The position numbers and the translations under genes are program-made. The notes beneath the pieces were generated by a model that had not been told where the DNA came from, searched no databases, and saw only the letters and a program-made list of their open reading frames with translations. This document shows positions 1 through 61,500 of a stretch of 64,000 nt of DNA, piece after piece. The DNA is from Tribonema minus (taxonomy: Eukaryota; Sar; Xanthophyceae; Tribonematales; Tribonemataceae), in contig JAFCMP010000323.1 of assembly GCA_017506865.1 (NCBI GenBank), positions 248,001 to 312,000 of the forward strand, written 5' to 3'. The number at the start of each line of letters is the position of its first letter. The stretch's first letter is position 1.

Positions 1-30
1 TATGTCGACCTCCTCGCCAAGGGATTGAAG
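1..30 (+). repeat. Partial copy of the first importin exon's 5' part
   Basis: The window opens with a GTCGACCTCCTCGC-like segment matching 203-218 inside the importin exon at 180-415, followed by non-coding sequence. It is best read as an exon-edge echo lying in the intron upstream of that exon. Confidence 0.5.
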
Positions 31-179
31 TTATCGTTGAGATGAGAGTTAGCTTGGAAGTCAGCGTTCGAGGTCGGCCGCTGTATGACGGCAACGCTAT
101 GCATGTTCTTGCGCGAAGATGCAATTCTGACGCCCCCCACCCCCCCCGCCCCCGCCCCCTGCTGCAACCGTATACCTAG

Positions 180-3100
180 GTCTTGGCGTCGTGCCCGCCC
201 TCGTCGACCTCCTCGCACGCGGCACCCAAGACCATTCCTCCGCCAAGGAAAGCGCCGCCGCAGTGGCAGCGATGACTCCGGCGCTAAGGACCCTGGGAAA
301 CTTGGCCGCCGGTCCCGACGCGTGGGTCGCACAGCTGCTCAGCCAGCCCAAGTTTCTGCCAAGTTTGGCCCAGGTGGTGGCGTCGCAGGACCCGACGCAC
401 CACGCCATGGTGAAGGTGCGCGTGCTGCTTGAAGTGCCGTTTGCGTATCGCAGCGTGATGCTGTGATCGGGGCTGCAGACGCCACGCAACATGACCCCTC
501 GTCCTTCCTCATCTGGAGAAACTAATGATTGATTGTCTCTTATAACCCAAAATCCTGGCAAAGATGGTAGCGACGCAGGGTCAAGGCGTATGTGCAGCGA
601 TCAACTTAATCGCCTTGCGCCCCTGCTCCGATCGCTGACGATGATGCGCAAGCATTGGGGCAGGCCGCGTCATGATGCGTGTGCTGGCATCAACGGAGGT
701 ACGTTTCGGGCTGGCTATGAGCGCACTCAGCCCAGAGCTGCTCATGCAACGCCAAACCCTAACGCCAACCCTAGGTCATGGTGCGCGTGCGGCGCTCTCG
801 CGATTTGCGCTGCTGTGCGGGCACATGTTGATAGATTGGGCCTCACACTGACCCTCATCCTGGAGCCGCAACGCCTTTTATCACGCACCACACCTTGTCA
901 AGTGTGCACGAAGCACGCTTATCTGAGTACTCCCCCAAGCCCTGACTCTACTACCTCACGGCCGTTGCAGGAAGCGGCGTGGCTCGTGTCTAGCCTGGTG
1001 GGAGGCCACGAATCATTTCGCGACGCCTTTTCTAGTGTGCATGCTGCATACTGAACCACTCGGGTTCCGAATACCTCTCCATGTTCTTCATCTTCTTCAC
1101 TTTCCAACACTCAACCTTTATCCCAATCCACTGCGCAGGAAGCGGCGTGGCTCGTGTCCAGCCTGGTGGGGGGCCACACATCATGCCGGACGCCATTTCA
1201 AGTGTGCAGGCTGCATACTGAAGCACTCTACATAGTCTCAAATACCTGTCCCTGTTTCTTCTTCAATTCTCAACGCTCAACCGCTACCGTTCGTTCAGGA
1301 AGCGGCGTGGCTCGTGTCTAGCCTCGTGGGCGGGCACGCATCCTGCCGCGACGCCGTCCTAGCAGCAGGCTTCCTGGTACCGACGCTGGACCTGCTGCGC
1401 AGCGGCCAGTTTGACCTGCAGCGCGAGGCGGCGCGCGCCGTGTGGAATATCGTCGCCGACGCCGCCAACAGCGCCGGTGCTCAGCAGGCCCTGCAGGTGA
1501 CACTCCGCTTCCCCAAACATAAAGCTCGTGCTAGCACCCACCCTCCAACTTTCGTTCGTGTCGCGAGCATTCAGTAGGGTTGGCCGCCGTGTGGAACATT
1601 GTCGCCGACGCCGCCAACAGCGCCAGCGCTCAGCAAGCCCTGCAGGTGACCCAAACTTCGTGCTGTGTAGCACCAAAACGTCTTTCATGGCCCTACGGTC
1701 AATAGGGTCAGCCTTGATTGATCGGCTAGGCTACGCAAGGACTGAGAGTGGCCGGGCTGGAACATCGTCGCCGACGCCGCCAACAGCGCCGGCGCTCAGC
1801 AGGCCCCTGCAGGTGACGCTCCGCTTCCTCAAACTTCAACTTGGTGCTAGCACCCACCCTCCAACTTTTGTTGACGCTAGGGTTGAATAGGGTCGACCTT
1901 TGTTATGGCTAGGCCACATGAGATTGGTAATGGCTGCCGTGTGGAGCTTTGTCGCCGACCGCCGCCAGCAGCGCCGGCGCTCAGCAGGCGCTGCAGGTGA
2001 CGCTCCCCCCACCCTTGAAGTTCAACTGTAGGGTAAGAAAGGTCAAGTGTTGGCCTAGGGTTGGGCATTGGGTTAGTGTGGAACATTGTCGCCGATGCCG
2101 CTTAGCAGGCGCTGCAGGTGACGCACCCCGGTCTTGATGTTCGTCATTAAAATTATGCTCTGGGCCGAGCTTCATGGGATGACACTGTCAGACCAGCAGC
2201 AGGGCTCAGCAGGCTTGCTTGCCATCTGATTCTACTTATATCACTGCAGCATGAAGGCATCACCGCACGCACATTGCAGGCTTAACGGAACAACGGCCCC
2301 GGGCCGCAATACGCTCGTCATGCGCGCCCTGCACCCCTTCGCACTTGCACCGCATCACACTCCTGCGCACCAGACCATGTGCTCTACGCTGTGGTCACCA
2401 ACGCTCAGTTCGCGACCACATCACATCCCTCACACCACCCCATGCTCCCCTTCCGACTTGCACCTTATCACGCTGCTGCACACCAGACCGAGTGCTCTAC
2501 GCTGCGGTCAGCAACGCTCAGCTCTCGCACACCCTCACGCGATCCCATCGCTCCGCTTCGTGCTGTGCAGGCTGTTACAGCAGAACCCGGCGTTCTGGCC
2601 GCCTTTGTGGCGCTGCTCCGCGTGCCCGACATGGAGACAGTTGCTGTGGCGCTTTCCTACGTGAGACTGGTCTGCGAGCGCGTTCCTGAGGGATCGCGCG
2701 CTGTGGAACGCGCGGGGGGGCTGGAGGCTATCGACGAGCTGCACTACGGGCCCGTAGATCCCGCCATCAGTGCTCAGGTGACAGATGCATACTTGCATAC
2801 TGAGCTCGCCTATAAAGTTAGTTCATTAAACCCTGATTAAACCGTGGAACGCGCTGGAGGCTTGGAGGCCATCGACGAGCTGCACTACGGGCCCGTAGAT
2901 CCCGCCATCAGTGCTCAGGTGACAGATGCATACTTGCATACTGAGCTCGCCTATAAAGTTAGTTCATTAAACCCTGACTAAACCGTGGAACGCGCTGGAG
3001 GCTGGAGGCCATCGACCAGCTGCACTACGGGCCCGTAGATCCAGCCATCAGTGCTCGGGTGACAGATGCATACATACATTGACTGCAACAGCGGCGACCA

Positions 3101-4216
3101 CGGTCATTGGTGGAAGGCACTTGCGGCTAACCATCTCTTGTCACCTAGAGCTCTACAATCTTTTGATTCGTTTTCATACATACTGAGCTCGCCTATACAC
3201 TTAGTTGATCGAACCCTGATCAAACCGTGGAACGCGCGAGAGGGTTGGAGGCTATCGATGAGCTGCACTACGGGCCTGTAGATCCCGCCATCAGTGCTCA
3301 GGTGACAGATGTATGCATACATACATACATGCATACATCCGTGCGTACTGTAGAGCGATTGACGAGCTGCACTAGGGGCCCATAGATCCAGCCATCAGTG
3401 CTCAGGTGACAGATGTATGCACACTTACATACATACATGTGTACTGTTGAGGCAGCCGTCATCATCATCAGCGCTGGTACTCTGAGGTACATGAAGGAGT
3501 GCTGCATTGAGTGCACGTTCAATCCACAAAACGAAAGGGCTTTCGCGCCCCAAGCGGTATTAATAAAAGTACATGCATACACTGCAGATCCAGCCAGCAG
3601 CGCTCAGGCGGCATGTATATGCACACGCATACCGTGTAGGGTCAGCCATCAGTGCTCAGGTCACGCACGCATAGTCTACAAAGAAGCACCCCTTTTTGCA
3701 ATCTTGTTGTGTGGCCGTCGATGAGCGCTGAGGCTTCTCGCAACAAGCAAAGTTGAAGTCAATGACTGAGGGGGCGTTGTTTGCGTCGATCCCTCACCTG
3801 ACGTAACAACTGCGCCATGCCTTGCTCATGCTCTCATCAGGCGGCGGCCGTTGTGGACAAGTTCTTCGGTGATGACTATTAAGAAGACTCCACTGCGCCC
3901 CCCGCTGCCCCCGCGCCAGCAGCCCTAACCCTAAGTCGCGGCGGCGCACAAGCACTAGCCTCAACCCCAACCCTAGCCCCAAGTCGCTTGCAGAGTCCAC
4001 CAACAATAACATTTAGTCGGACTGTCTCTCACCTGATGTGGCAACTGCACCATTCCTTGCTCATGCTCTCAGGCGGCGGCCATAGTGGACAAGTTTTTCG
4101 GTGAGGACTACGAAGAAGACTCTACCGCGCAGCCCGCTGCGCCCGCGCCAGCGGACATAGGTCACGGCATGGGCCGCGGCAAGCACCTCACGGAGCCTGC
4201 CTGGATGCACAAGTGA
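180..4216 (+). CDS. Importin-alpha-like ARM-repeat protein, 3' half (5' end outside window)
   Basis: Importin alpha is the nuclear import adaptor that binds NLS cargo through armadillo repeats. Four exons fit together in phase: 180-415, 1299-1496, 2571-2777 and 4073-4216 (stop). The joined protein reads like the C-terminal half of importin alpha. It has the segment EAAWLVSSLVGGHASCRDAV (family pattern KEACWTISNITAG), then AARAVWNIVADAA (KEAAWAISNAT). Next comes ERAGGLEAIDELHYG (EEAGGLDKIEFLQ), then AAAIVDKFFGEDYEED, the repeat-10 and acidic-tail region that normally contacts the export factor CAS. The tail ends PAWMHK, preceded by a Gly-rich stretch. The IBB domain and first repeats must lie before the window. 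All introns contain direct copies of the neighbouring exon edges. Identification as importin alpha is strong from repeat order; which paralogue cannot be told. Confidence 0.82.
971..1235 (+). repeat. Two acceptor-side exon echoes (importin exon 1299-1496)
   Basis: Segments starting at 971 and 1139 repeat the first 60-70 bp of the exon at 1299, each with its own AG acceptor (GCAG or GCAGGA) and with similar flanking intron sequence. Unit spacing is about 160-170 bp. The copies diverge into stops after about 25 codons, so the last acceptor, at 1299, is the coding one. Confidence 0.85.
1575..2125 (+). repeat. Four donor-side exon echoes (importin exon 1299-1496)
   Basis: Copies of the exon's 3' end, beginning GTGTGGAACATTGTCGCC and ending CTGCAG|GTGAC, recur near 1590, 1755, 1934 and 2078. 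Spacing is about 165-175 bp. Each retains a GT donor. They diverge progressively and the last is shortened. Confidence 0.85.
2334..2570 (+). repeat. Intron tandem duplication before importin exon 2571
   Basis: A unit of about 115 bp beginning near CGCACTTGCACC and containing GTGCTCTACGCTG occurs twice in tandem directly upstream of the acceptor at 2571. It is diverged and has no coding potential. Confidence 0.6.
2844..3665 (+). repeat. Donor-side exon echoes (importin exon 2571-2777), five or more copies
   Basis: The exon end (GTGGAACGCG to ATCAGTGCTCAG|GTGACAGATG) plus about 60 bp of intron is repeated from 2844, 2984, 3225 and about 3360, with short remnants near 3588 and 3637. The first copy is almost identical to the original, including its intron part, so it is recent; later copies are progressively decayed. 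Confidence 0.88.
3531..3577 (-). repeat. Dispersed short element, diverged copy
   Basis: Read on the minus strand, 3537-3572 gives GTACTTTTATTAAT, then a CGCTTGGGGCGCGAAAGCCC stretch. It is a shorter relative of the near-identical copies at 9141-9188 and 13411-13456. Confidence 0.5.
3779..3960 (+). repeat. Acceptor-side echo of the importin last exon; possible alternative terminal exon
   Basis: About 120-150 bp of intron and exon start is duplicated: 3795-3930 matches 4031-4155. The copy keeps an acceptor (ATCAG at 3836-3840) and reads AAAVVDKFFGDDY before a TAA at 3880. If spliced, it would give a C-terminus lacking the acidic Gly/Pro tail. Confidence 0.75.
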
Positions 4217-11363: not shown

Positions 11364-11396
<33 letters not shown>

Positions 11397-11523
11397 TTCT
11401 CATTCAAACTCTCCGCTGGCTATCGCTATTCAAGCTGCCCCCCTCCCCCCCCCCCCCCCCCCCTGTCTGCCTTACGGCGGCACTGCGAATGGCCTTGCTG
11501 TAAGACATCTCATTCTCCACTGG
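9711..11523. other. Region between the two protease genes, no firm gene
   Basis: Mostly AT-richer, non-coding-looking DNA. A GC-rich island at about 10440-10640 has an open plus frame (10414-10650) reading ADAFLVTGYADVTRQLFMVD with coding-like composition, but I recognise no family and see no convincing splice partners. CCCTAA-type repeats lie at 10920-10945, and two long C tracts at about 11370-11397 and 11441-11462. Confidence 0.4.
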
Positions 11524-14500
11524 CTAACGCTGTTCGAGCTCTGCCAGCGGTGACGTGATCCACGAGTACACATCATCGTACTTATCGGCGGTCATCATGG
11601 TAAGGCTGTTGTACACGTCAGGCCATGCGCCGGAGCTCACGGTACTGGCAGTTAAACCTGCGCCGCCCGGCACTGTGTGGTGACTCACCACGCCATACGC
11701 CTGAGTTGCAGGTGCATATGAAACAGCATGGAACATGAGCATACATTAGTATGAAGTCATGGCGTTGAGCGTGTCTGCACGTCACATTGAGCAACAGTTA
11801 CGGACAGGGTTCAGGTGAGGGGTAGGCCACGCCCGTGTTGTGCGTATCAGCACACGGCAGCGATAGGTCCAGACACAAAGTGTCAGTTGTGCCTAAGAAG
11901 ATGTTGGCATGCGCCTCTTGCAAAGTGGGACGTGCAAGATAAGTTGACATTCATGTTGGGGGTCATGAAGGCGAGCGTGTGGTATCAACAACCATGTGTG
12001 AGTATGAGCCGGCCCTTTGGTTACCTAGCTGGACGACTAGCTGAGCATCAGCAGCGCTCGTCCCTTTGCATCAGTAATGTTGTGTGCATGTTGGCGCGTG
12101 GCAGCGCAGGGTCAGGGTTACCTACCAGCTTTAACCTATTAATAAGTCCTTTGAGTGTCGGCACACAGTAGCAACAGGTCCTGACAAAGTGTCAGTTGTG
12201 CCTCAGAGGACGTTGGCGTATTCACCTCTCACCAAGTAGCATGTTTAAGGAAGGTTAAAATTCGTGTAGGGGCTCATGGAGGCAAGTGTGCGGCATCACA
12301 ACTATTCGTAAGCGCGAGCTTATACTACATATACTCAAGTAGCTGGCGACCAGCATTAGCACCGCTCATCCAATAAGTTGCTTTGAACCGGAATTATGCG
12401 GGATGCAGATGCTGTCTGAATTGCAGATGTACGTACATGCATGTGAGCCCCCAACAAGCATCATATTTGTGCTTGATACTTGTAGGTGCACAGCATTGGT
12501 TTCAGTAGACCAGCGCTGTTGCGCATGGCCTCAAAGTTTGAAGTGCGCCCATTTTGCCTGCACGCATAGCTGTCACTGCCTAGATGCATTGCGGTCACTA
12601 CTTAGGGTTGCCCTAACCCCAACCCTCACCCTGATCGCTAACCCCAACCCTAACCCTGATTGCGGTCTTTACTTAGGGTTGCCCTAACCCTAACCCAACC
12701 CTGACCCTCATTGCTTTGACTACCCTACATACATACCATACTCACCAGAGTGCCAGTATCCGCTCCCGCATCGCCGAACAAGGCGGAGCCGGAGTCGCCC
12801 TCGACCCAGTCGCAGTTGGTGATAGCCGTTCCACCACCGCAGCTGTAATTGATGTCGCTGCATGTGCCAGAGGCCCACATGGTGCTGTTCTTGTCCCCGG
12901 GGTAGCCACTCAGCTTCACGGCGGGCATGTTGCACGCGTCCTTGCTCACGCCCATGTGGTAGCTGCGCGCAGTGAGAGGGGGGGTTTAGGGGGGCGCACG
13001 AGATTTCATGGTCGGTGCACCACTAATATGAACAGAAACGATCAAACAGCTGCTGAGCATGCTCTGCATTTGTGAATTTGTCGATGCGTCTGCCAGTCTG
13101 TTTCAGGGCGGGCATGCTGCATGCGTCCTTGCTCACGCCCATGTGGTAGCCGTGTGTGGTGAGGGGGGGGTTTAGGGGGACGCACGAGATCTCTCGAGCT
13201 GCACCACTAGTGTACGCAGGAAATGATCAAAGGGCTGCTGAGCATGCTCTGCGTCTGTGCGGTTGTGCATGCGTCTGCCAGTCGGTTTCACGGCATATTT
13301 GATTACAGAGCACCACGTGGAGACTTTACCTCTGCTCTACTTTGAAGAATGGTGCTCTTGATCTCAACATGTGCGGCAGGGATAATGTACTTCGAAGTAT
13401 GTACTGCGAATGTACTTTTTATTAATTCTCGCTCAGGGCGCGAAAAAGCCCAGATGATTGGCATCTGCGAATGTACTTCAGTACATGCTTCGAATGTACT
13501 TCCACAAGCACATGGTGCACTGAGGCTCCCAGGCTGAACACTACGCTGCTGACGAGGTTCATTTGTGCGCAACAGTGCGTCGCGGCGCCTCATCAACATA
13601 TTGTGGCCACCACCCTCAGACCCCCCTGCGCACAGCAAAACAAAGCACAAAGTTCAAGCTGACTTGCCACGCGCTTGCCGCTTACCCTATGGTGTCAAAC
13701 GCGCTGCGGCCGGTGTCGGGGGCCACATCCAGTCTGAGCACTGCCATGTCAAAGTTGAAGTCCTCAGCGCCGGAGTCGGTCCACTCGGAGAACGTCGTCT
13801 GGTACAGGATGGGGAAGGTGCCAAAGGGAGCATCGTCGCCGATGAGGGACGGGTTGAAGATGGCAGCGCTCATGAAGGCGTATTCGCCTGCACAGTGCCG
13901 CAGTAGCAGGAGGGGGGGCCACGGGGTAAGTGAGCAGGGGGGATGATGACGACAGGGTGTGCGTTCGTTGAGGCATGGCTGTCATCGAACCTAACCCTTA
14001 CCCTGGCATTAACCCTGATTTGACCCTAAGTGTACCTCATCACTAACCGGAACCCTGATTGAAGCCTTGACCTGAAGTCTAGGGTGAGAGCAGGCACTGG
14101 CGGCAGCGCAGTGATGGCTGCTGAGTGCATATGAGAGCAGCAGGCCGTCTGAGATCGGATGCGCAAGCACCCTGTCAAACATCGATAAATTAGCCAAGTG
14201 CATACATCTAAGGTCAGATGATGGTGAAGCTTGCATGATGAGAAAGGGAGGGCGGCAGCACAACTCCAACTTCAATGCTAACACTTCAAGGCACTTTCAC
14301 TGGCCCGCCAAGAAGCCTTGCCACCAGTGGTCCTATGCGTCAGAAAAACACCAGCGCAGTCTGTCGCCGCTCGGTCTCTGTGCGCACCACACAGGCACCT
14401 CAACTTCAACTTGAAGCTCACCCGTATCCGCATCGAGGCCGTACACGCAGTGCCCCGCCGTCAGCACCGCGTCGGTGCCCACCAGCGTCCCCGAGCACAG

Positions 14501-20226: not shown

Positions 20227-23200
20227 CTACAGCCCCGCGGACGCGAGTATTGGCTGCAAAACCAGCGCGCCGAGCGCCACCCCCGCCGCCGTCCCAATAG
20301 CATTGCCCAGCGTCCCAACCAGCAGCGCAGGCAGCGCCAGCGAGTGCCACCCCTTGCCCGCCGCCATAGCGCTCGCGGTGGCGGCGTTGCCCACCGCAGC
20401 ATTGCTCGCCACCAGCGCCTCGCGCAGCCCCGCCGCGCGCGCGCCCAGCCCCACCGCCACCGCCAGGTGCACGGCGTACATGACGGCGCCGAACAGCAGC
20501 AGCGGCGCGGCGCCGGCGGCGCGCGCGGCGGCACCGACGGTGCCCGCGCTCGCGCCCACGCTCGCAAAGAAGAGGAAGAGCAGCTGGCGGCCGAAGCGCT
20601 CGGCGGGGGGGACGAGGGGGGCGAGCGCCCCCGGGGCGGCGGTTGCGAGTGTAACTGCCAGCGCGGTGGAGATGAGGGTGCCGCCGTCGGGCAGGAAGCG
20701 CGCAGCGAGGGCTTCGGAGGCGGCGACGAGGCAGAAGCCGAGCGCGAGCGCGCTGGAGGAGGCTTGCAGGGGGTCTTGCGGGGGGTCTTGCGCCTTGCCT
20801 GCGGGGCAAAAGGGAATGACCATGAAGTTACAACAAACACAGAAGGTGTATATGAGGCATGGCAATCGTGTCCTCGCATGTGGCGTGAGTACATGAGGTG
20901 CTCTGTACTACTTGATTGGCGAGCGCGCGCGAGGTGGCTTGGAGGGGGTATTGCGGGGGGTCGCGCGCCTTGTCTGCGAGGACAGGGGGGGGGATGGACA
21001 TGGAGTATGAAAATTATAGATCAGGCGTGGTAGTGGTGTCCTTGCAAATACATGGCGCTCCGCATTCCTGAGGGCAATGCACTGTCTGCCACTGCCCATC
21101 AGCACAGTCAGGTTCAGGTAATGAGGCAGCGCTACACCGTCCAGTGCAGCAGCAGAGTGTCCGCAGGTGCACAGTGCGGCAAGTGTTCCGCCCGCCGCCG
21201 TCACCGCAACGACTGCTGTGTCGAATTTAGCTGGTCTAAGCGCAGCCACCCAGCACTGTGCAGTGCAGAGTGTCTTTGCAGCAGTGCCCTGCAAACCTCC
21301 GGGCTCAACGCATCTCCTCAGCAGCATGGCGCCTTGAACAGTGCACTCACCGCATGCCTACACACCTGGTGGCAGTGCTCCGTCCCCCCACCACCGCCGC
21401 ACCAAGCGCCGTGTCGCGCTCAGCTGGTCTACACAAAAGTTCACAGTACAGCAGCGGCATGTCAACGTGCACAGTGCGCTGCACACGTACCTGATGGCAG
21501 TGCTCCGCCCGGCCGCCTCCGCCGCGACGATTGCGTGGTCGGGTTCAGCTGGTCTACGATTTTCATATTTTTGATCACCACCACCACAGTACAGCAGCAG
21601 CATATCCTGAGCAGCGTGGCGCCTTGAACAGTGCACTCCCTGCATGCGTACATACCTGGTGGCAGTGCTCCATCAACCACCGCCGCCGCGACGACTGCAG
21701 GGTCGGGTTTAGCTGGTCTACAATTTCACCTCTTCGATCACGGTGGTCATGGTGGCCATAGTACAGCAGCAGCATGTCAGCGCTCTGCAGACCTACCTGG
21801 TGGCAGTGCTCCGTCATCCACCGCCACCGCAGCAACTGCAGGGTCCGGTTCGCGCGGCTCGTTGCGCCCCAGCCAGCCCACCAGCGGGAAGTACAGCAGC
21901 CCAAGCAGGTTGTCCACGGCGAGCGCGGTCACGCAGACGGCGCTGGGGACGTGCAGCAGCTCAGCCGCAGCCACGAAGTTGAGCCCTGACGTGATGCGGT
22001 GATGCAGTATCAGCAACTGGGAGTGATGCAGGGGTACTGTAGGCAAATGAGAGGTTAGGAACTGTAACCTGAAAGTGCCATGTTGTAGTGATTCGATAAG
22101 TTTGCGGGACGGCAAGCGCTGCTGGGGACGTGCAGCAGCTCTGCCGCGGCCACAAAGTTGAGCCCTGACGTGATGCGGCGTCAGCAACCGAGGGCGGTGC
22201 AGGGGTATGCAGAGGAAATGATTTATTGTGACCTGAGGTTGCAATGTTGTAGTGATCCGATCGATTCGCTGGGCAGCAAGCGCAGCCGCGACTGCAAAGT
22301 TGAGCCCTGAGGTTGAGCGGTGATGCGGCGTCAGCAAATGGGGGGGTGCAGGGGTACTGAGGCAACAAAAGTTCAGAAAACTGTGACTTGCGATTCACGA
22401 TGTTGTAGTGATTAAATGAATTCGCAGGACAGCAAGCGCTTGGGACGTGCAACAGCTCCGCCGCGGCCACAAAGTTGAGCCCTGATGCGATGCGGCGTCA
22501 GCAACCGAGGGTCGTGCAGGGGTGCGCGAAAACGGGGAAATGATTACTGTGACCTGAATATGTGATGTTGTAGTGATTCGATGGATTTGCGGGGCAGCAA
22601 GCGCAGCAGCTCAGCCGCGGCCACAAGGTTGAGCGGTGATGCGGTGTCAGCAACCGGGGGTGGTGCAGGGGTACTGTAGGCAATTGAAAGGTCGGGAATG
22701 GTGACTTGCAACCGCGATGTTGTAATGCTTCGGTAAATTTGAGCAAGCGCATGGGACGCGTAGCAGGTCCGCCGCAGCCACAAAATTGAGCCCTGACGTC
22801 GAGCGGTGATGCAGCGTCAGCAGCTGCGATGGTGCAAGGGTATGCAATCGAAAGTTTACAAGGCCATGTTGTGGTGATACAAGACATTCACAGGACAGCA
22901 AGCGCTGGGGCGTGCAGCAGCTCAGCCGCCGCTGCAATGATGAGCCCTGAGGCTGAGCGGTGATGCAGCGTCAAGTGCACGTTCACGAACAGCAAGTGTT
23001 GCGGTTTGTTGGTGACGCGCGCCCGTCAACTTCAACAATGCCTCACTTCGAAGATGCGGGTGTGTTCATCCACAATGAGAAGCGTCAATGCTGCGGCGAG
23101 CGCTGCACTCTGGCAGAGCGAATGCAAACGCAACTTCACCCCCCTCCTCACCTCCCCCTATGTTCTTTGCTGCCAGCGCCGCCAGCACACGCCAGCCCCC

Positions 23201-24243: not shown

Positions 24244-27200
24244 ATGATTACATACCCAGCACGCACACAGACCAGAAAGCGACAGCGGTCCCGCCAGGCA
24301 TGCAGCAGCACCAGGCGGAAGTTGGTGGCGATAGCGTTCACAGCACTTCACACTCTTCATGCAGTCAGGGCAGGAGAGCCACTTCCGGCACACATCGAAC
24401 ACCCTTTTCGCAACCTCGCCGCGTGGCTGAAGGACATCGATTCCGACCTGCAATCGGTCGACGTCAAATCAATAAGCAGGGGCATCACCGTGCTTAGCAA
24501 GTCACAGGGGACCCTCAAGTCCTTTGATGGCATGGCCTATGAAGTGGGGGGCAGGATGAGCAAGAGCTCCCTCACCACCGCCGATGTGCACGCCGTGCGA
24601 GAGGAGGCCCTCGCCACCGGCAGCGCCTCCGTCGAAAGCGACGCACTGAAGCTCATGGAGTTGCTGGTGGAGATTGAGAAGGCGCTGAGTGCAGCTGAGA
24701 TTGTGGAATGCGCAGCGGCGGACCTCGCCAATCCCGACACTGCTGCTGACTACGCTGCTCAGGCAGGGTATGTACCGCTGCCCGCCGTGCCGCCGCCGCC
24801 GCCACCGCCGGCCGCCACAGAAGCCGCTGAACAGCAGACGGTAGCCGACGCAAGCAGTGACGCGGCACAGGCTGCCATGCAGCAGGGCGACAAGGACAAC
24901 GCCGGAGATGCAACAGCTGGCCCGGACTCCAAGGGGGGCGCGTTCACCGCGGCAGATGCTGCCGCGCTCGCGCAGCTGCCGCCCGTGCCGCCCGTCACCA
25001 TCCCGGTGCCCGCAGGCGGCGACACTGGCAGCAGCAGCAGCAGCAGCGGCGCGGTCCACTGCCGCCTGCTGTACAACGCGCAAGGCAAGCGCGTGGTGGC
25101 AGCGCTCGCGGACGACCTCGGCGGCGGAGCGCTGCTGCGGGCGCTGAGCGCTGCCCCCATCGCGCTGCCCCTCGCCGCGCGCGGCCTCCTGCACGAGACG
25201 CTGCACACGGCGCCGGCGGTCTGGGCGGCGGCGCACGCGCTGCTGGCGGCGATCGCCCCAGCAGTGCTCAACTTTTTGAGGTCACCCGCGGGCGCCGGAG
25301 CAACGGTGCTCTTCGTCGGGCACAGCTTTGCGGGCGCGGTGGCGGCGGTGGCGGCGGGGCTGCTGGACGGCGCACTGGCAGTTGAGGGCGGCGGCGGCAG
25401 CAGCGGCGGCGGCAGCGGTGGCAGCGGCAGGCGGAGTGAAGGGAAAGTGGGCAGTGCGGAGGCGCGGTGCAAGGGGGGCAGCAGCCGGCGGGCAAAGGGG
25501 GTGGCAGAAGGGGGAGATGGGGGGATGGCGGAGAGCGCGAGCGCGGCGGCGTCGGGCGGCTATGTGGGGGCGGCGCGCGGGCGCGTGAAGTGCGTGACGT
25601 TTGGCTGCCCGCCTTGCGTGAGCGGCGCCGCGGCGCTGCCGTGCGTGACGTCGTTCGTGCTCGGCGACGACATGGTGCCGCGCGTCAGCGCTCAGTCGCT
25701 GGAGCAGCTCAAGCGCAGGCTGCGCCAGGTATGCAACGCTAGCCCTACCCATAACTGCAACCCTACCCCACCTTCAGTTGTGACCCTTGCTGGAGTAGCT
25801 CAAGCGCAGGCTGCGCCAGGTAACTAACCCTAGCCCTAATCCTACCCTAGCCCTAACCCTACCACCAACCCTAATCCTAACCCTCGCTGGGGCAGCACAA
25901 TTGAGCGCCAGCGCCGCCTGCTGCGCGCCTCCTGACGCAGTTGAAGTTATGTCTGGCAGTTGACGTTATGTCTGGCGGCGAGCGTCAGGGCACTGCGAGT
26001 GTAGTATGCTTGCCGCTTCTGTGACGTGTTGGGTGCACAACCCCCTTGCTGCACTGCATATGGTTAGGGCTGCGGTGAGGGTAAGGGCAGCCCTCAGTGG
26101 GCCAGACGCAAGCTGCCCCGTGGGACCGTTCATTCCCGGCAGTCCCTCGCTCTACACGCTGCTTGCAAAGAGTTGAGGTCATGTCTCTCATGAGGGACAG
26201 CGGGGGCTTGCGCTTGCTTTTCTCATGGTGTGTGTGACATGTGTACACAGTGCTCAGCAATGACATTGTGCTCAGCACAGCGCCAGTGCGCCAGAAAGCC
26301 GTGAGCGCTGCCCCCTCGTGCGCCGCGTGGAAGTCAGCGCGGCATGCAATGTGACGTTGTGTCATGTCAGAAAGAGCGGGGGGGCATGTGTCTCACTTTA
26401 TAGGCGAGGCACCCTTTACAGCGCATGCTCTGCCACATGTACTAGGGTCCCTCGCCCCCTACCTCCGGAGGCAGTAGGGAGGGGCTTTCTTGTGACCTTC
26501 ATAGCACAACAGGTGTGAGTCTACAATGGTGTTGTGGCGGTGCGGTAGCCGAAACCGCGTGCCTCGCAGCTGGATCAGGTGTATGCAGGTATGATGCACT
26601 AGGCACACGCTGTACCTCCGTTCAGGTGCTGCCGTCAGTTGCGGGCTCCATACACACATCTCGTTTGCTTGCTGCGGTTCCTGCAGCATGAGCTGTGACA
26701 CTCGGCAATGCGGTCAGCTGCTGTGCATTCAGAGGCTGCTGCAACGGCTGCTGCTGCTGCTGCTACAGCAGCATCAGCTACGAATCGTGGTCATGCAAAG
26801 CGCTTTTGAGTTCTCGTGTAGCAACATGAACAAAACCTGCATGCATGGCGCTCAATTCCAGCTTCAACTTCAAGTGTCATCAACTGCCATCTTCACATGC
26901 TTATCCTGTACTGTCGGATCAAAATAGACGCCCGTGTTTCAAAATGAGGTACACAAACCGCACATTGCATGTGTTCTTACCTCCACGTATTATGTACATC
27001 AAAGCTGCACATTGAATGTGTTGATATCTTCGGCTGCATCAATGATCGTATGACCGCCTCACTGCTTGATTATGCCTGCCTGCTCTCCAATCGCAACCAT
27101 GTCACCATCCCCATTCATCCCTTGCAGGTCCTGCCCCGAGGCTCTGGCTTCTTTGGGCAGAGCCTTGCCATGGGGACCACCTTGTTCACGGACGTGGCTG

Positions 27201-52500: not shown

Positions 52501-55500
52501 CGTGCCACTTTTAGGGTTAGGGTTAGCCCCCACAATCAACTGCCCCCCCCTCCCGTCGTCCTTAGCCTTTTTCGCATTTAGCTGGGATTAGACTTATTAT
52601 CAGCCTAACCCTAAACCTAAACGTAACCCTAGTTTGAACGTGGAAATGTTCACATCCGCGGTGTGGAAGGCTGAAGTGACAACTGACACGCGCAGCGCTT
52701 GTCAGAACCAAGTAGTGTCAGGCACAGATACAAGTATGACAAATGAATCAAAAGGTCGTAGAGTTCTAGGTGACAAGGCGTGGTTAGCATACACTGGTTC
52801 AGGCGTTTCTTGTGAAGGCTGCTTTGGCCCCGCCTGAACCTCACAGCTATGTTTATATACGATTCCGACGCACACATATAGATTGCAAATTACACATATG
52901 CGTGCAACACGCCCTGTGCTCTCTATGACACCACACTGACGCGATGCCATCACAACGCTCAACCATTCTGCGCCCCTCAGACGCGAGCGCCTCCAGCAAG
53001 GCCGCGTTCCCGCTGCAGCAGCTCGGCGAGGGCGTGCTGCGCGCCGCGCTGCCGGCGCTGCCGCGGCTGCTGGCGCGCTCGTGCACACTCGGCCGTGGCA
53101 GCAGATGCTCGGCGCTGCGCACGTGCTGCCGCCTCGCCGTGGCGGCGCTGCGTGCGGGCTACAGCGCGTGCGGCAGCACCTTCATAGGTATGTAGGTACA
53201 ATGGGTACATGGGGTAGTGTAGACAGTGCTCAGCGCGTGCTGCCGCCTCGCCGTGGCGGTGCTGCGCGTGGGCTACAGCACCTGCGGCAGCACCTTCATA
53301 GGTATGAAGGTATGGGGAGCAGTGTAGACAGCGCTCCTCAAGTGCTGCCGCCTCGCAGGTGTATGCAGCCGCCATGTACGTATAATGCAGACTTATGGTG
53401 TGACTGCCGCTCAAGCCTCTGCCCTGCGCCAATGCTGGTTTGCAATGTGGGTGTGAAGCCAACATGCTCTCACGGACTCCGACCTGTTGTCATAGTTGAC
53501 CTATATTGCAGTCGTCGAGCACTGTGCACAGTCGCTGCTAGGGTTACAGTCAGGGCTAGGGCTGACCGTATCTTCATCGCTTTTGAAGGCCCGTGCGCCT
53601 CAGCAACAGACGCGGTGATGATTGGCCATAATTCTCCCATTCATGACCAGATTGGGATCACCTCTCAGCCTATTGAGCCATTGCTTCACTGCCATCAAAA
53701 CACAGCGAACGCTGCTGCGGCATAGGACCACACACAGGTCATCTCTCATCCCCTCACACCTCACCCCCCGTTGCTATCACTGCAACTGAAAATACGCCGC
53801 CGCTACTGCTGCTGCTGGTGCTGCTGCCGCTGCCGCCGCTGCTGCCGCTGCTGCTGCCGCCGCCGCCAGGCTCGCGCCTGCTGGAGAAGGTCTCGCGCGG
53901 CGGGCTCGGCGGCCGCGGCGCCGCCGCCGAAGCCCCCGCCGCCAGCGCCCCCCCCCTCCTCGCCAGCGTCGACTCGTGGCTGCGCACCGGCGTGCTGCCG
54001 CTGCTGAGCGGCCTCGACGCGGAGGAGGTGGAGTGCGCCGTCTTCACAACGCTGCGCGTGCTGCACGCGCCGCCGCTGCGGCCGCAGCGCGCGCTGCTCG
54101 CGCCCGCCGTCGCGGCCGCCGCCGCCGCGCTGCTGCCGCTGGCCGCCGCCGCCGCCGCGCGCGCCGCGCCCGCGCCGCCGCCGCCGCCGCTCAACGCCGG
54201 CCAGGCGGCGCTGGCGGCGGCGGCGACGGCGGCGCTGCGGTGGGCCCCGCCGCAGGCGCTGCCGCCGCTGCTGGCGGCGCTGGTGCCGGCGGTCGCGCTG
54301 TGCCCGGAGCCTGGTCAGCGCCTGGGGCTGATGGCGGAGGCGTTCTTTGCGGTGATGGTGTGTATGCCGGGCGGCGGCCGCGCCAACAAGCCCGCGATCC
54401 TCGAGGCCATCCTGGAGAGCGACTGGTTGCACGGCGTGCTGAACGCGGACGCGCCGACGGCGGCGGCAGGCGGCGGCGGCGGCAGCAGCGGCGGCGGCGG
54501 CGGCGTGCCGTTCCGGGAAGAGCTCGTCGCGGCGCTCACGCACACGTGCGCCTACGTCCTGACGGCGGGCGCCACCGCCATCGCCGCCGCCACCGCGCCG
54601 AGCGCAGACGCCGACAGCGGCGACGACGTCAATGGCAGCAGCCTGCCGTCGCCCGTGCAGCAGCAGCTGCCGCTGTCGGGCGTCGGCCGCTACCCGCTGG
54701 CGCCGCACGCGCCGGACGCCGCCGCCGCCGCCGCGGAGCGCTGGTGCGACCTGGAACGCTGGGTGACCATGAGCGGCGCCGTGCTGCACGCGACGGGGCT
54801 GTGCGTCGGCTGGGACGGCGGCGCCGCGTCCGCGTCCGCGGGCGCCGACGGCTACACGCGCCTCCTCACGCTCATCCTGCGCCTGACGAGCCCGAGCGCC
54901 GCGGCGGCGGCGGCGGCGCGTGGCGGCGGCGGCAGCGGCGGCGGTGGCGGCGCGCGCGCCCTCGGCTCGCCCAGCCCCATCTTCAGCCCGAACCCGCGGC
55001 CGCAGCTGTCGGGGGATGCGCGGCTGGCGCGCGCGGCGGCGGCACACGTGCCGCGCCTCGATCAGCTCGGCTGGAAGCTGGCGCAGGGGATGCCGGGGCG
55101 GCGCGCGCGCGTGGCGCTGCTCGGCGCTCTGTGCCGCTACCTGGCGGACGTCTCGGGCGCGGCGGGGCAGGCCGCGGACGAGCAGGCGGGTGATGGTTGA
55201 TTGTTGAAGTTCAGACGTTCTCGTTCCGTTGAAGTTAAACTTCAAGTCCTTGTTTTCATTCTGGCGCGCTGATCACGCGCACGCGTCGTGTGTGAGCGCG
55301 TGGCGTGCGCCTGCGGCCTGGTGTGGCGCATCTCCTGTTGAAGTTGCAAGTCCCTTGATTGAAGTTGAACATTGCGACACATCTCCTGCGTGCACATGCA
55401 GCCATGTTGCGTGCGGCTGCATGTGTGACGTTGTGGTCAGCCCTCACGCTGGGCCCAGCGTTACCTCTTAGGGTTAGGGTTAGGGTTAGGGTTAGGGTCA

Positions 55501-58500
55501 CCGCACCTCAAACCCTCACCACAATATGGGCTTTCAATATGCAGTCAGACCTTACAGCACATGGCGTCTCTTGAGCCGCGTTTCATCCCAGGTGCACGAT
55601 GAGAAGTCTTGGAGACGACGCAAGCTCTTCGCCTCTGCTCAGTGTATGGTGTCTGGAAGAGACCACTTCAAAAGCACCAGCGCAAGCACATCACAAATCT
55701 GCTGAGCGCTCAGAGCCACCGCCAGTCGTGCAAATGATAATGCACACACAATGCGCTTCTCTCACACAGCTCAACTCCCACGCCCATTTCTTTCATCATT
55801 TCCGCGCAGGAGGAGGACGACGCCGCGCTAGACCTGGTAGCGCGCGTCAGCGTCGAACTCGCAGCGCTCGACGCCCCCGCCACCTCAAACTTGAAGTCCG
55901 CAGCCCCCCCCGCCGCGGCGGCGACAGCAACAGCGGCAGCGCCCGGCGCGGCGGCAGCAGCGGCGGCGGCGGCGGCGGAGCGCGCCGCGCAGTGGCGCGT
56001 CAACGCTCAGCACGCGCTGCTCGGCTGCCTGGTGCGGCTCGCCGCCGCGTACGACTCGGCGGCGGCGCCGGCGCTGAAGGCGGCACGCGCGGAGCGCGAC
56101 AGGGTGTGCCTGCGCGACGGCCTTGGGGGACAGGGCAATGGGCCGCTGGTGGACCAGGCGCGGCGCGCGGTGGCGGCGCTGGAGGCGGTCACGCGGCGCG
56201 GGCGCGCGTCGCTGGCGGGTGAGAGTCGCAAGTAATTGTTGAGTCTAAGTAGTGATTAGCAGAGTCGGGGGAGTTTCGTCATAGCTGGCGGACCAGGCGC
56301 GCACCATGGCAGGTGAGTCGTTGCGTCCAAGTCATGAGTCATGAGTACCATGCATGTGAGTCACTGAGTCCAAGCAGTGAGTCATTGATAGCATGGTGGA
56401 AGTGGGCACTTGTCGCTGGATGCAAGGTCATGAATCTTGCAGCTGAGCGATGAGTCCAGCGCTGAGTCATAGATGGCATGGTGCAGGGCGCTGGAAGCGG
56501 TCACACGGCACGGCATGCATCCTTGGCAGGTTATGCATGACTCTGAGTCATGAGATACAAAGTTCAAGCAGTGACTCGTAAATGGTGTGGGCCCTGAGGG
56601 CGGGCACGTGGCGCGGGCGGACGCCGCTAGGGGATGACTCTGAGTCGCTGAGTTTGACCAGTGAGTCATAGAGATCGTGTGGAGCAGTGGATGGCAAGTC
56701 ACGGGTTGAAGTTGGGATGAGCCGCGCGTCACAGCCCCCTGGATTCGCTGTGTCGGCGTCACCATCACTTCAAACTAGCAAACCGCGAATGTCGCATCAG
56801 CAGCGAACAGATTCAGATTCCTGGATTCTTCTTTCGTTGCCAGCCGGAGCCAAGTTGCTCCGGCAATCTGCCGCTGTGCGCACGCCATGCACGCCCACAG
56901 CAACCTTCACCTATAGCATCGCCCCTGCTGATCTACGCGACGCGCCATGGCACGCGGCGCCGCCGCCCCGCATACGCTCACAATCCCTTGTACTTCGAAA
57001 TACAACCAACAGGACATTTTTATGAAGTAGACCTAGAAGACATCAATACCCTGACCGGCCGTCCACCGCAAACGCGCGCACCGCGCCAGGCGGCGCGGCA
57101 GAGCTGGCGGCGGCGGCGGCGGCGCGCGCCGCGCTCGGCTTCATCGGCACGCCGCCGGGGCTGCCGCCGCCGGCCGGACCGCTGAGCGCTGATGACGCGG
57201 CGCGCAAGGCAGCGCTCCGCGCGGCACTGCTGGGCGAGCTGGCGCTGCCGCCGGCACAGGAGCGCGATGCGCGACTCGGCTGCGGCGGCGGCGGCACGGG
57301 ATTTGATTATAGGACGGGCGCGCAGCAGGAGGTGGCGGCGCGGCTGTCGCGGCACTTCCGGTGGCCGCCTCGCGGCGGTGAGGCGCAGACGCTCCTATAC
57401 TTCCATTGTCACGTAACCTCAACTCCTAGCCCCCTATTTAGCTCTTACAACGCAGACTTGATCAAGGCATGTAGGTACCGCCAGCGGCCGCCATGCCGAT
57501 TTAACACGCAACCATGCCACTTTCAGCTTATCCCAACTTTAAAACCTGAACCTAACTCCCGGTGGCCGCCGCGCGGCGGTGAGGCGCAGCCGCTTACGGT
57601 TTGGGTTGGGCCCGAAAGCCTGGTGTAACCGCTGCTTGAAGTACAGCGTAGCCTTGAAGTTGTGGTCTTGAGGTATTGCCGTTTGCTGCTGCGTGGCGGT
57701 GAGGCGCGGCCGTGTGACTGTTTTGAAATCAACACTCACGCTAGCCCTGGCCCCAGCCTACCTCGAGCCTTGCCCCCCAAACTTTCAACTTCAATCACAA
57801 GTCTGAAATTGTAGTTGTGCTTGAGGTTGCTGCCGTTGGTCCTTATGCAGCGAGCAAGAGCCCTCTGACTGCTGACCAAGTCTTACATCCCTGACTTCAC
57901 TCTCAGGTTTGTTCAAGGTTATACTTACGTACTTGAAGTTACAGTTGAGGTCACCGCCAGCTCCCTCCGCATGAGCTTGGACGACAGAGCAGGCGCACAG
58001 ACGGAGGCAACAAGAGCAGCTGTCGCCGCTTTCGGTGATGATGGACGCTGCAGAGCTGCGAGCAGCAGGATTTTGATTAAGGGTTAGGGTTAGATTCAGA
58101 CGCGTTAGCCTGGCCTGGCTCTCACCCTAATGTGACCTTCATCTACGCTGATGCTGGAGTACTTGTGACAGCCAGCAGATACACGCCCTTAGAGGAAGCA
58201 GCCTTGTTGTTGGTGCTGTTTGATAGCAATGGGCATGGCAGTGGGCACGCAGACTATGCTGTCTGGCTGAGCACTGCACGCGACACTGGCTAGGGCTAGG
58301 GTGAGGCCGACACGGCCCTGATGCCTCTGCTGCCGCTGCGTACCGCCGCGATGCCGCACGCGCCGTGCAGATGCTGCCTGCGCGGCTTTGGCACAACTGC
58401 GGCAACAAGCAGCTGCAATAAAACCTCCTGCCGTGGAGAGCACGCAGCGCAAATTACCTTTACATGACGGCATTTGTGCAGGATGAAAATCGCAACGCAA

Positions 58501-61500
58501 CTCAATGCAGCGCAGCGCAGCAACAGGCCACCAGAGTGCGCCGCGCGCGCGATCGGGCTACGCTTGCCTCGACGCCAGCAACACCTGGCTGCCCCCGACG
58601 ATCCTGCCATGTCAGCGATAGTGGCATCGAAACACGCGCCTGTCCTGAAGTCTCTTGCACGCAGCACAGTACGTGCGACTGAAGCGCAGCGACACTGCCC
58701 CTCTCTGCCGCCGCCGCCGCCGCCGCTGCCGCGTTTTTCCAGAGTAATGCATTGCTGTCACATGTTGCGCTGTAGGTCGGTATGTGAGACTGAAGCGTGC
58801 CGACGCTGCCGCTCTGCACCGCCGCCGCCGCCGCAGGCCACGGCGCCGCGCCGCTGCCGCCGCCGTGCCGTGCCCTCCCAGGTTCATGCATTGCTTTCAC
58901 ACATGTTGCACTATAGGTAGGTGTATGAGACTGAAGCGCGCTGAGGCCGCCGCCGCCGCCGCAGGCCACGGCGCCGCGCCGCGGCCGCACGCCGCGTGGT
59001 CGCCGCCGACGCAGCTCAACGGCGGCAGCGAGCCGCTGCACCTGACGGCGTGCCACCGCCTCACGCCCAGGTGGCGCGCGCACAACAGCGCCGGCGGCGG
59101 CGGCGGCGGCGGTAGCGGCAAGGGCGTGTCGCTGCGCGTGTGCGCGTACAACGCCACCAACGGGTCCATTACGGACGCGCTGGAGATACGGCTGGGGTTC
59201 GGCGCGGGCGCGGCGCCGGCGGCGGTGCCCGCGGCCGCTGTGGTGCTGCGCGATCGGCTGCTGCCAGGTGAGGCAGCAGCACCAGCAGCAGCGCTCAGTG
59301 CGTGTGCGCATGACACGGCAGCAGCGCGAAACTGCGGCACTCGCATTACGACGGCGGGTTGCTGCAGGGCCCGCTGCTGCCAGTCGCTCGTAGCCTCAAA
59401 GCGTCAGAACCACATGTACCCGGCGCTACGGTTTTACTTAGGGTCATTTCTAGGGTTAAAGGTAGGGTTGCCGCATGTCCCTCGGCTGCCAGGTCAAGCG
59501 CGATCATTATGAAGGCGCAAAGTGTCAAAACCGCAAGCACGTACGCTCATGCAGGGGCAACAGTGCGGCCATTCGCACACGCATGCGGGAGAACATCGCC
59601 ATCTTGCTATGACAACAGACTGCTGCAGCACGCCGCGCTGCCTGCCAGGTGCGTTAGGGTTACCCCACACCCTAACCCACAGCGACCGCGGTTTGCTGCA
59701 GCCCCGCAGCTGCAGGTTGAAGCAGCTGCGCTCACGGTTCTACTGTAGCGGTCGCGCCATAAAAATGGATGATGTGCGGAAACTCAAGCCAGCACGTGGT
59801 CACGCAGCAGCAGCGTGTGTGCTTGATTTGCTGTGTGCGCTGGACGGCGTATGCATCCCTTGCGCTGCATACCCTGCCGTCGGCGCCAAAATTCCGTGTG
59901 CACCTGTGCTCGCCACTCTCTCCCCTCCCTTTCTAATCCCCCTTCCTTCCACCCCCACCCTCCTTCACCCTGCCCCACCCCACCCTCCCACCCCTCTCCT
60001 CTCTCTCTCTTTCTCACACACACACACACACGCACACGCACACGAAGGCACATTCACGCCCACGCTAAAAACGCACACACTCACGCTGACATACACACGG
60101 GCACACTCACACTCACGCTAAAGCCACGCAACTCACGCCGTAAAACCCTCAACGTACACTCACACCCGGAACAACCCGCAACGCGACGCGATACACGCTA
60201 CGCGTAGCGCAGGCACATCACACAGGCACACTCACATCCGCGCTCAACACACTCACACCGTGCGACACCCGCAACGCTCCGCAATACCCGCGCGCGCGGG
60301 CGCCGTGGGACGTGCCCACACACAGGCACACCCGCACCCACGCTCACAACGCACACACTCGCACATTCAAAAACCCGCAACGCTATACTCACACTGGCAC
60401 GCTCACACGTGCGCTAAAAACAAACGCATTGTAAAACAAATAAAACTGCGACGCGCGCGTGCAGGTGCCGTGTACACGTGGGACGTCCCCCTCGCGCTCG
60501 CCCCCGGCTGGCGCGCCCTCGCCGTCACCGCCACCATCACCATGCTGCACGCCGAGCCCGACCCCGAGCTCGAGGCGGACAGCGCCGCGGAGCTGGCCGG
60601 CGGCGACGCGCTGCTGCGCGCCGCCGCCGCCAAAAAAGCGGCAGCAGCAAGCAGCAGCGAGGGGGATCTGGGGGGCGGCGGCGACGCGGCGGCGCCGCCG
60701 GTGCCGCTCGTGGTGGGGGCGGGTATGTATGTTGTGCACGCGGAGGCGCTGCTGCTGCCGCGGGCGCGCGGCGGCGGCGGCGGGGGGCTGGCGGCGTTCC
60801 AGTCTCTGTTCTCGGGGCTCGCCCACAGGTGCAGTACGTGTTGTGTGTGACAATTTTTGTATGTACCTTTTGGGTATGTAGGTATGAGTGTTCACGTTCC
60901 AGTCGCTGTTCTTGGGGCTCGCACACAGCATATGCGTCGTGTGTTGGAGTGTTTTCTCTAGAAGTGTGTACCTTGTGGGTATGTAGATATGAGTGTTTAC
61001 GTTCCAGTCGCTGTTCTCGGAGCTCACGCACAGGTGCAGTGGGTGTTGTGTGAGAGTTGTGCATGACCTTATGGGTATGGTATGTAGGTATTCACCTCAG
61101 GCGCACTGTCCTCACAAACAAGTAGGTGCGCAGGCCAATGTTGTTGCTGTCCAGTGTGTGATGCGTGAGAGTACGCCTCTCATGGTATGGTACTGGTGTT
61201 GTGTGGTATGGTATGGTATGGTGTGTGTGTTCGCAATGTGCCTCACGGACGTCTAGGTTTGAGCGCTTCTTGCACCCATACAGCTTTGCACGTATGAGAG
61301 TGCTACAGCTTTGCTGCAGCGCGACATGTGCACTAACGAAGTGCGCTTCGTATGCAATTCATTTAGACGTCACATACTTGTGATTACGCAATTCGTGTTC
61401 ACCGCTCATGGACTGTAAACGTGCTGGTGTGTGAGCTTTAACGGTGGCTCTGCAGCGTTGTTAATACCGGCGCTTTTGGGTATGTACGTACGTGCGTACG

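What the first reader, a model, noticed from the sequence alone, without database searches (positions are those of the whole stretch)
1..61135. Exon-edge echoes: splice-junction duplications inside nearly every intron
At about two dozen junctions in all the multi-exon genes (importin, protease B, DUF819, lipase, BEACH, TPLATE), a block spanning exon edge, splice site and intron edge is repeated in direct orientation inside the adjacent intron. Donor-side copies lie downstream of the donor; acceptor-side copies lie upstream of the acceptor. Unit lengths differ per locus (about 40 to 225 bp) and divergence ranges from near zero to barely visible, so neither one mobile element nor an assembly artefact explains them. 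The pattern fits repeated local tandem duplication across exon-intron boundaries, tolerated because the coding-side site stays in use. It would lengthen introns and leave ordered arrays of decoy splice sites and coding fragments. Tandem duplication is a known route to new introns, but I know of no description of such pervasive edge echoing.
Basis: seen in the sequence. Interest (0 to 1): 0.88.

Follow-up and report, generated by a model that had tools for sequence, protein, structure and literature searches.

The report
Exon-edge copies pervading algal introns
In the yellow-green alga Tribonema minus, short pieces of DNA that straddle the border between an exon and an intron have often been copied into the neighbouring intron, leaving decaying copies of exon ends and splice sites in introns that tend to be long.

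Summary
The window is Tribonema minus, a yellow-green alga. In my own gene models, 33 of 126 donor-side and 27 of 126 acceptor-side 40-bp exon edges have a strong same-strand copy in their own intron; other introns, inverted orientation and 145 mid-exon pieces give none at that score. In the window 17 of 32 tested introns carry at least one, elsewhere 34 of 94 (score >=32), so "nearly every intron" overstates it. Annotated proteins of two genes skip the copies. Best reading: local duplications straddling a junction are tolerated because the copy falls into the intron; some expand into arrays, and the copies decay neutrally, their GT/AG kept no better than other dinucleotides (48 of 57 against 0.825). 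No intron-birth signature was found. Age-matched, copies are densest at junctions, fewer deep in introns, rarest between genes (0.052, 0.027, 0.007), so coupling to introns or splicing is possible but unproven. Small tandem duplication is known; my searches listed no account of its piling up at splice junctions on this scale.

The parts
963..1355 (+). Importin alpha, acceptor of exon 1299-1496: two upstream copies of the exon start plus AG, beginning at about 971 and 1139
   Evidence: exon part 50/57 identical
1436..2129 (+). Importin alpha, donor of exon 1299-1496: exon end plus GTGAC repeated, copies ending at about 1645, 1812, 1996 and a shorter one near 2116
   Evidence: exon part 52/54
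2703..3438 (+). Importin alpha, donor of exon 2571-2777: array of period 141 with copies ending at about 2918, 3058, 3301, 3405
   Evidence: exon part 70/75
3077..3183 (+). about 105-bp high-copy element inserted in that array; not part of the echo process itself
   Evidence: (42 places listed; 40 of 1904 first-look candidates scored)
3790..4152 (+). Importin alpha, acceptor of last exon (4073-4216): one upstream copy with AG at about 3840
   Evidence: exon part 69/80
12905..13294 (-). Trypsin-like protease, acceptor at 12962: one copy at about 13150, lag 187
   Evidence: exon part 52/58; Pfam
20744..20981 (-). DUF819 gene, acceptor at 20798: one copy at about 20974
   Evidence: exon part 47/55; gene model agrees 100% with annotated P0121
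21310..21851 (-). DUF819 gene, donor at 21797: copies at about 21656, 21491, 21366
   Evidence: exon part 47/54
21940..22973 (-). DUF819 gene, acceptor at 21985: five copies between 22165 and 22947
   Evidence: exon part 41/44
25698..25838 (+). Lipase-like gene, donor at 25728: one copy ending at about 25819
   Evidence: exon part 30/31
30541..30703 (-). BEACH gene, donor at 30641: one copy at about 30549, 24-bp spacer
   Evidence: exon part 57/63
31827..32192 (-). BEACH gene, acceptor at 31852: copies at about 32012 and 32127 (moderate scores 37 and 33)
   Evidence: exon part 23/26
32366..33068 (-). BEACH gene: array overlapping the predicted exons 32764-32813 and 32999-33433; the former looks like an echo that my model read as an exon
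33590..33732 (-). BEACH gene, donor at 33702: one copy at about 33592
   Evidence: exon part 29/31
   Evidence: exon part 39/40
53119..53356 (+). same gene, donor at 53187: one copy ending at about 53301, lag 114
   Evidence: exon part 63/69
57354..57594 (+). same gene, donor at 57377: one copy ending at about 57578
   Evidence: exon part 22/24
60795..61079 (+). same gene, donor at 60828: copies ending at about 60928 and 61033
   Evidence: exon part 31/34

Best explanation
The echoes are decayed products of many independent local duplications. A segment (matched lengths 31-271 bp) that straddles a splice junction is copied nearby in direct orientation, sometimes with unrelated DNA between the copies. 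If the copy falls on the intron side, the original exon and splice site can still make the normal mRNA, so the event is nearly neutral and can be fixed. Once two copies exist the whole period can expand into an array. The copies then decay without constraint while the real exon does not, so exon edges stay recognisable longer than duplications inside introns. Shown here: the copies, their orientation, their tie to exon edges, their occurrence on other contigs, neutral-looking decay, and skipping in two annotated proteins. Inferred: the trigger, most likely repair of staggered or nearby single-strand breaks, and the secondary expansion.
For: Same-strand own-intron matches at 33/126 donors and 27/126 acceptors with zero controls at that score. 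Arrays found without reference to junctions: 66 of 110 cover a junction, 27 intron only, 9 intergenic, 4 exon+intron without covering the junction, 3 mixed, 1 exon only: arrays that hold exon and intron DNA nearly always include the splice site (66 against 4), as expected if the copy must land on the intron side. Exon parts reach 21-108 bp (donor) or 25-80 bp (acceptor) into the exon. Where intron parts still align (82 of 121 real-copy and 63 of 109 copy-copy pairs), substitution identity is .901 exon part and .839 intron part for real-copy.864 and .833 for copy-copy: copies drift, the exon is held. GT/AG is kept in 48 of 57 best copies, like any dinucleotide of the exon-derived part (2537 of 3074 = .825). 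Intron parts are homologous in 53 of 63 inner copies but 19 of 34 outermost and 13 of 25 single copies, with no lower exon identity in the single arrays that lack it (.904 against .886), as expected if a first, often spaced duplication is later expanded as a whole period.
Against: Direct evidence for break repair is lacking: 3 of 21 young pairs are contiguous and microhomology was not measured. Telomere-type TTAGGG/CCCTAA motifs, a known scar of break repair, are enriched in introns (141 against 26 expected; intergenic 32 against 16) but not more so in echo introns (0.91 per kb) than in other introns (1.24 per kb). A junction-blind process predicts equal age-matched rates everywhere in free DNA; I get 0.052 at junctions, 0.027 deep in introns, 0.007 between genes. 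Exon edges are echoed 9.0 times as often as deep intron windows (CI 6.0-14.9), where equal mutability would give about 2; faster loss of intron sequence can explain part of that. Exon-derived parts of copies carry about a third of the gaps of intron-derived parts (2.3 against 6.6 per 100 bp), partly because copies were found by their exon part.
Confidence: 0.72

Rival explanations
1. The duplications are not junction-blind: something linked to transcription or splicing (R-loops, stalled polymerase, nicks at splice junctions) makes introns, and their edges most, hot spots of local duplication.
For: Age-matched rates junction: deep intron: intergenic 0.052: 0.027: 0.007 at score 36; junction/deep 1.91 (95% CI 1.15-3.51) there and 1.79 (1.20-2.75) at score 32; deep/intergenic 3.33, 3.81, 3.67 with lower CI bounds 1.46, 1.56, 1.40. 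An earlier version without masking gave 0.062 (CI 0.037-0.089) for junctions. Exon edges echoed 9.0 times (CI 6.0-14.9) as often as deep intron windows, about 2 expected at equal mutability. 66 junction arrays against 27 intron-only, where random placement gives 0.084: 0.286. In 13 of 33 donor echoes the match ends within 10 bp of the junction.
Against: At the strictest score the junction/deep CI includes 1 (1.74, 0.73-3.52). A version counting partners on one side only gave near/deep 1.67, CI 0.82-3.2, and near-junction windows at junctions without echo look like deep ones (0.0305 against 0.0271). With exon-derived copies masked, rates were flat beyond 40 bp from exons. Intron sequence loses homology faster than exon-derived copies. 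'Intergenic' rests on my own gene models.
Confidence: 0.3
2. Echoes are functional decoy or backup splice sites kept by selection.
For: With fixed windows the exon-derived part is more similar than the adjoining intron part in 56 of 57 neighbouring copy-copy pairs (.817 against .585 on average).
Against: That comparison is biased because copies were found by their exon part, and fixed windows are pushed out of register by indels; with free alignment, in the 63 of 109 pairs whose intron parts align, identities are .864 and .833 and the exon part is higher in 37 of 63. Splice dinucleotides decay like the rest.
Confidence: 0.08
3. The echoes are remains of intron birth by tandem duplication of an exon segment with AGGT.
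For: Tandem duplication of AGGT-containing exon DNA is a reviewed route of intron gain (PMC3443670, section read).
Against: Birth predicts that the donor region aligns in register with the acceptor region of the same intron. Mean in-register identity over 60 bp is 17.8 against 17.4 for mismatched introns; 1 of 106 exceeds the 99.9% level. The copies contain existing donors or acceptors, so the intron was there first.
Confidence: 0.03
4. A mobile element or an assembly artefact makes the copies.
For: A 105-bp high-copy element sits in one array (3077-3183).
Against: In the one array searched genome-wide, the places listed outside the window match that insert only (42 places listed, 40 of 1904 candidates scored). 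Units differ from locus to locus and exon parts of best copies differ from the exon by 0-24%, which assembly errors would not give.
Confidence: 0.02

Closest known systems
Small tandem duplications from repair of staggered breaks (Pol alpha-primase/CST fill-in, NHEJ; PMC8355091: abstract and passages seen)
   Same: Short-range direct duplication of arbitrary local sequence; [quoted passage not shown]
   Different: Here copies straddle splice junctions, are often spaced and go on to form arrays; no microhomology or enzyme evidence
Intron gain by tandem genomic duplication of AGGT exon DNA (PMC3443670: abstract and sections 8 and 9 read)
   Same: Local duplication of exon DNA containing a splice site, coding sequence kept by splicing
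   Different: Here existing introns are lengthened; no in-register signature of birth
Direct repeats near intron borders (PMC11782384: abstract and first part of the results read)
   Same: Direct repeats at exon/intron borders
   Different: Theirs are 4-30 bp, pair the 5' border with the 3' border and are read as insertion scars; here 21-108 bp of exon plus the site is repeated on one side, often several times
Introners (PMC9860276: search listing only)
   Same: Large effect on the intron content of a genome
   Different: Introners are copies of one element in many genes; echoes are particular to each junction
Tandem duplicated, mutually exclusive exons (recalled)
   Same: Exon sequence repeated within an intron
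   Different: Echoes carry one exon edge and one splice site, not a whole exon, and two annotated proteins skip them

Membership tests
Intron gain by tandem duplication | donor and acceptor regions of the same intron align in register | tested here: not met
   own mean 17.8 of 60 against 17.4 for mismatched; 1 of 106 above the 99.9% level
Introner / mobile element | the same sequence dispersed at many loci | tested here: not met
   for one array only: apart from the 105-bp insert, the listed places match only the window itself; other arrays not searched genome-wide
Local (tandem) duplication | direct orientation, short distance | tested here: met
   direct far above inverted; 49 of 60 best copies lie 91-271 bp from the junction
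Local (tandem) duplication | copies head-to-tail without spacer | tested here: inconclusive
   3 of 21 young pairs contiguous; several of the other 18 compare copies two or more units apart
Break-repair product | microhomology or filler at the breakpoints | tested here: inconclusive
   young pairs with spacers of 24, 88 and 90 bp that showed no significant residual homology; microhomology not measured
Functional splice decoy | splice dinucleotides conserved above background | tested here: not met
   48 of 57 against 0.825 background
Mutually exclusive tandem exons | whole exon copies with both splice sites | tested here: not met
   21-108 bp of exon with one site; P0001 lacks the copies and P0121 agrees with a model without them
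Mutually exclusive tandem exons | copies used in mRNA | not testable with these tools
   no RNA reads at hand; only annotated proteins were seen
Stwintrons (nested introns; PMC8469720, search listing only) | a splice site of one intron interrupted by another intron | not tested
   would need RNA intermediates

The most novel reading that the evidence does not exclude
Splice junctions and introns of this alga are hot spots of local duplication because of a process tied to transcription or splicing, so that genes keep pushing copies of their own exon edges into their introns; intron growth is then driven by where splicing happens rather than by transposons.
Probability: 0.25. Interest if true: 0.82.

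Novelty: new variant of a known kind. Interest (0 to 1): 0.64.

Why it matters
About a quarter of the tested splice junctions carry a copy of their own edge (51 of 209 at a 30-bp setting). That would make introns fossil records in which each junction dates its own duplications against a constrained reference, so rates of small duplication and of neutral decay could be read directly. It offers a transposon-free route to long introns, fills introns with natural decoy splice sites that must be avoided, and is a hazard for gene finders (mine took echoes for exons). If the age-matched excess at junctions holds genome-wide, it links splicing or transcription to genome instability.

Tried and rejected
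Echoes as conserved functional elements: the first test (exon part more similar in 56 of 57) looked strong but was biased by how copies were found; with free alignment and the dinucleotide control it fell away. Junction-targeting as the main reading: array counts, even after allowing a factor of two for slower decay at exons, suggested a 4-12-fold excess; age-matched tests gave about 1.7-1.9-fold or a flat profile beyond 40 bp, so it is kept as a rival. Sharp unit boundaries at the splice site: of 27 cases in which the match runs 20 bp or less into the intron, 15 still show residual homology beyond at p < 0.05 (14 by shuffling), so many are decayed longer units. My first gene finders ran genes together and were discarded. 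An early extension script aligned sequences to themselves and was replaced. My early guess of a green alga was dropped once importin alpha identified Tribonema minus. Telomere motifs as a direct mark of the echo events: not supported.

Not in print: searched (open PMC library only); none of the listed papers describes pervasive exon-edge copies in introns, judged from titles and abstract beginnings. For the genome itself, (20 of 39 papers listed; 10 of 18 listed) showed no Tribonema minus genome paper. Work on rice insertions and on nickase-induced duplications in plants is recalled, not read.
Full report
What the sequence is. The window lies in contig C323 (1,003,705 bp) of a 158-Mb assembly of 554 contigs. 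The importin alpha model matches an annotated Tribonema minus protein, P0001, at 96% identity, and its contig has the same length. Tribonema minus is a yellow-green alga (Xanthophyceae; classification recalled). Twenty further 10-kb stretches of the genome (two of them flank the window) and eight 3.1-3.2-kb loci served as an outside sample.

Checking the observation. Local direct repeats are frequent and inverted ones rare: 49 against 1 in the window. I wrote a two-strand gene finder, self-trained on the window and sample, and ran it with a stiffer intron penalty: 155 introns in 49 genes, of which 126 passed filters (29 dropped for short exons, short introns or weak coding score). At local score >=36, 33 of 126 donor-side and 27 of 126 acceptor-side 40-bp exon edges recur in their own intron. 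Inverted matches: 0. Other introns: 0.0 of 126 per draw. Mid-exon pieces: 0 of 145. At the laxest score shown (>=28) the figures are 39 and 31, against 0.5 and 0.4 for other introns, 2 and 4 inverted, and 3 of 145 mid-exon. Introns resampled with their dinucleotide frequencies gave 0 of 209. At score >=32, in the window 17 of 32 tested introns and 20 of 64 junctions carry an echo; elsewhere 34 of 94 and 43 of 188, so the window is richer than the sample. Echo junctions came from the window with its flanks and from 14 of the other 24 stretches that held predicted introns.

Are the gene models right? The DUF819 model agrees at 100% over its whole length with annotated P0121. P0001 agrees with the importin model except near one donor, where my finder had taken an echo (-1094 to -1021 in window coordinates, in the flanking locus L009) for an exon. 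Homologues of importin from other organisms (P0002-P0005) also lack the copies, judged by eye. Pfam confirms BEACH and the protease. The 'TPLATE' name could not be confirmed. My BEACH model also contains one echo-like exon, 32764-32813.

Anatomy. I looked for copies of exon edges in the adjoining intron only; array detection was free of that restriction. Copies contain 21-108 bp of exon at donors and 25-80 bp at acceptors, and 49 of the 60 best copies lie 91-271 bp from the junction, the others further. Of 63 junctions with at least one copy, 27 have one and 36 have two to seven. Exon-part identity runs continuously from under 0.80 to 1.0, so the process is long-lasting rather than one burst. 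Of 21 pairs with >=90% identity, 3 are contiguous; several of the other 18 compare copies two or more units apart, but spacers of 24, 88 and 90 bp in others show no significant residual homology to what follows the copy. The intron part next to the copy is homologous to the real intron edge in 53 of 63 inner copies but only 19 of 34 outermost and 13 of 25 single copies (inner against outermost: Fisher p 0.0035); single arrays with and without homology have similar exon identity (0.886 and 0.904). I read this as a first duplication that may be spaced or end near the junction, followed by expansion of the whole period. That is inference.

Decay. In pairs whose intron parts still align (82 of 121 real-copy, 63 of 109 copy-copy), substitution identity is .901 (exon part) and .839 (intron part) between the real junction and a copy, and .864 and .833 between copies; gaps per 100 bp are 1.8 and 6.1, and 2.3 and 6.6. 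Copies therefore drift at similar substitution rates in both parts while the real exon is held; the gap difference remains, and is partly due to finding copies by their exon part. Splice dinucleotides survive in 48 of 57 best copies with an alignable junction, as any dinucleotide of the exon-derived part does (2537 of 3074). A fixed-window comparison had suggested conservation of the exon part (56 of 57); I trust it less, for the reasons given under Tried and rejected.

Is it aimed at junctions? Counts say so: 66 of 110 arrays cover a junction, 27 are intron only and 9 intergenic, local direct repeats cover 21.6% of intron, 8.4% of exon and 3.2% of unassigned bases, and exon edges are echoed 9.0 times (CI 6.0-14.9) as often as deep intron windows. 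But a duplication between a constrained exon and a free copy stays visible about twice as long as one between two free copies, and intron sequence here also gains gaps faster. To compare like with like I took the frequency of exon-edge echoes times the chance that the neighbouring intron windows of such junctions are echoed too, and set it against deep intron and intergenic windows: 0.052, 0.027 and 0.007 at score 36. Junction/deep is 1.91 (CI 1.15-3.51), 1.79 (1.20-2.75) at score 32 and 1.74 (0.73-3.52) at score 40; deep/intergenic is 3.3-3.8 with lower bounds 1.40-1.56; near windows at junctions without echo (0.0305) look like deep ones. An unmasked forerunner gave 0.062 for junctions. With other masking and counting, intron windows were flat with distance beyond 40 bp and raised within 40 bp (0.125 against about 0.06-0.10), with 0.022 between genes; a one-sided version gave near/deep 1.67, CI 0.82-3.2. 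So duplications seem to prefer introns to intergenic DNA three- to fourfold, with perhaps a further twofold at junctions. All this rests on my own gene models and, for these tests, 106 introns of at least 300 bp.

Mechanism. Small duplications arise when staggered or nearby opposite-strand breaks are filled in and rejoined (PMC8355091, abstract and passages). Introns here are also rich in telomere-type hexamers, 141 found against 26 expected, intergenic 32 against 16. The telomere repeat is probably TTAGGG, to judge from contig C2, which starts with its complement, and interstitial telomere repeats are known scars of break repair (PMC7215372 and PMC2246262, search listing only). However, echo introns are no richer in them than others (0.91 against 1.24 per kb), so the two marks agree only in pointing at introns.

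What it is not. No in-register signature of intron birth. In the one array searched genome-wide, only a 105-bp inserted element recurs among the places listed. Not whole exons.

Verdict. Real, found across the genome sample, mostly explained by neutral local duplication filtered by splicing. Its scale and its intron and junction bias are new to me; the listed searches showed no account of it.

Noticed in passing
window 3077-3183: About 105-bp high-copy element (mostly 92-96% identity among the 42 places listed; 1904 first-look candidates, 40 scored). SINE- or MITE-like is my guess. In the sample 10 of 12 matches lie in predicted introns.
   Followed up: partly
window 12611, 25824, 45140, 55468: Interstitial telomere-type repeats (TTAGGG/CCCTAA). 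Sampled introns hold 141 hexamers against 26 expected; the whole genome has 2303 forward and 3123 reverse hits of a 30-bp run, overlapping hits and contig ends included.
   Followed up: partly
window 6558-8326 and 12771-14626: Two similar stretches about 6.3 kb apart (three longer aligned pieces of 75-77% identity), both read as protease-like coding sequence in my models: a probable tandem gene pair.
   Followed up: no
window 8363-8722: Long Gly-Ser-rich repeat (GCTGCC period 6, about 58 units) in the predicted protease coding frame.
   Followed up: no
window 38080-42256 and 45424-49143: Very long predicted exons (4.2 and 3.7 kb) of the BEACH gene, with no echo at their edges in my list, among shorter exons several of which bear echoes.
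   Followed up: no
window 20-64 kb: P0139 (DUF819) and P0242 (homologue of the 'TPLATE' gene) both list a longest contig of 27,729 bp in a metagenome source: perhaps one relative that holds both genes close together.
   Followed up: no
window 50701-50868: Pair of 55-bp repeats, one wholly in a predicted exon and one in the intron: either an exon copy without its junction or a misplaced donor in my model.
   Followed up: no
L027:6277-9584: Non-genic tandem arrays of period about 133: the locus with the highest echoed fraction among unassigned DNA in the sample (0.137).
   Followed up: no
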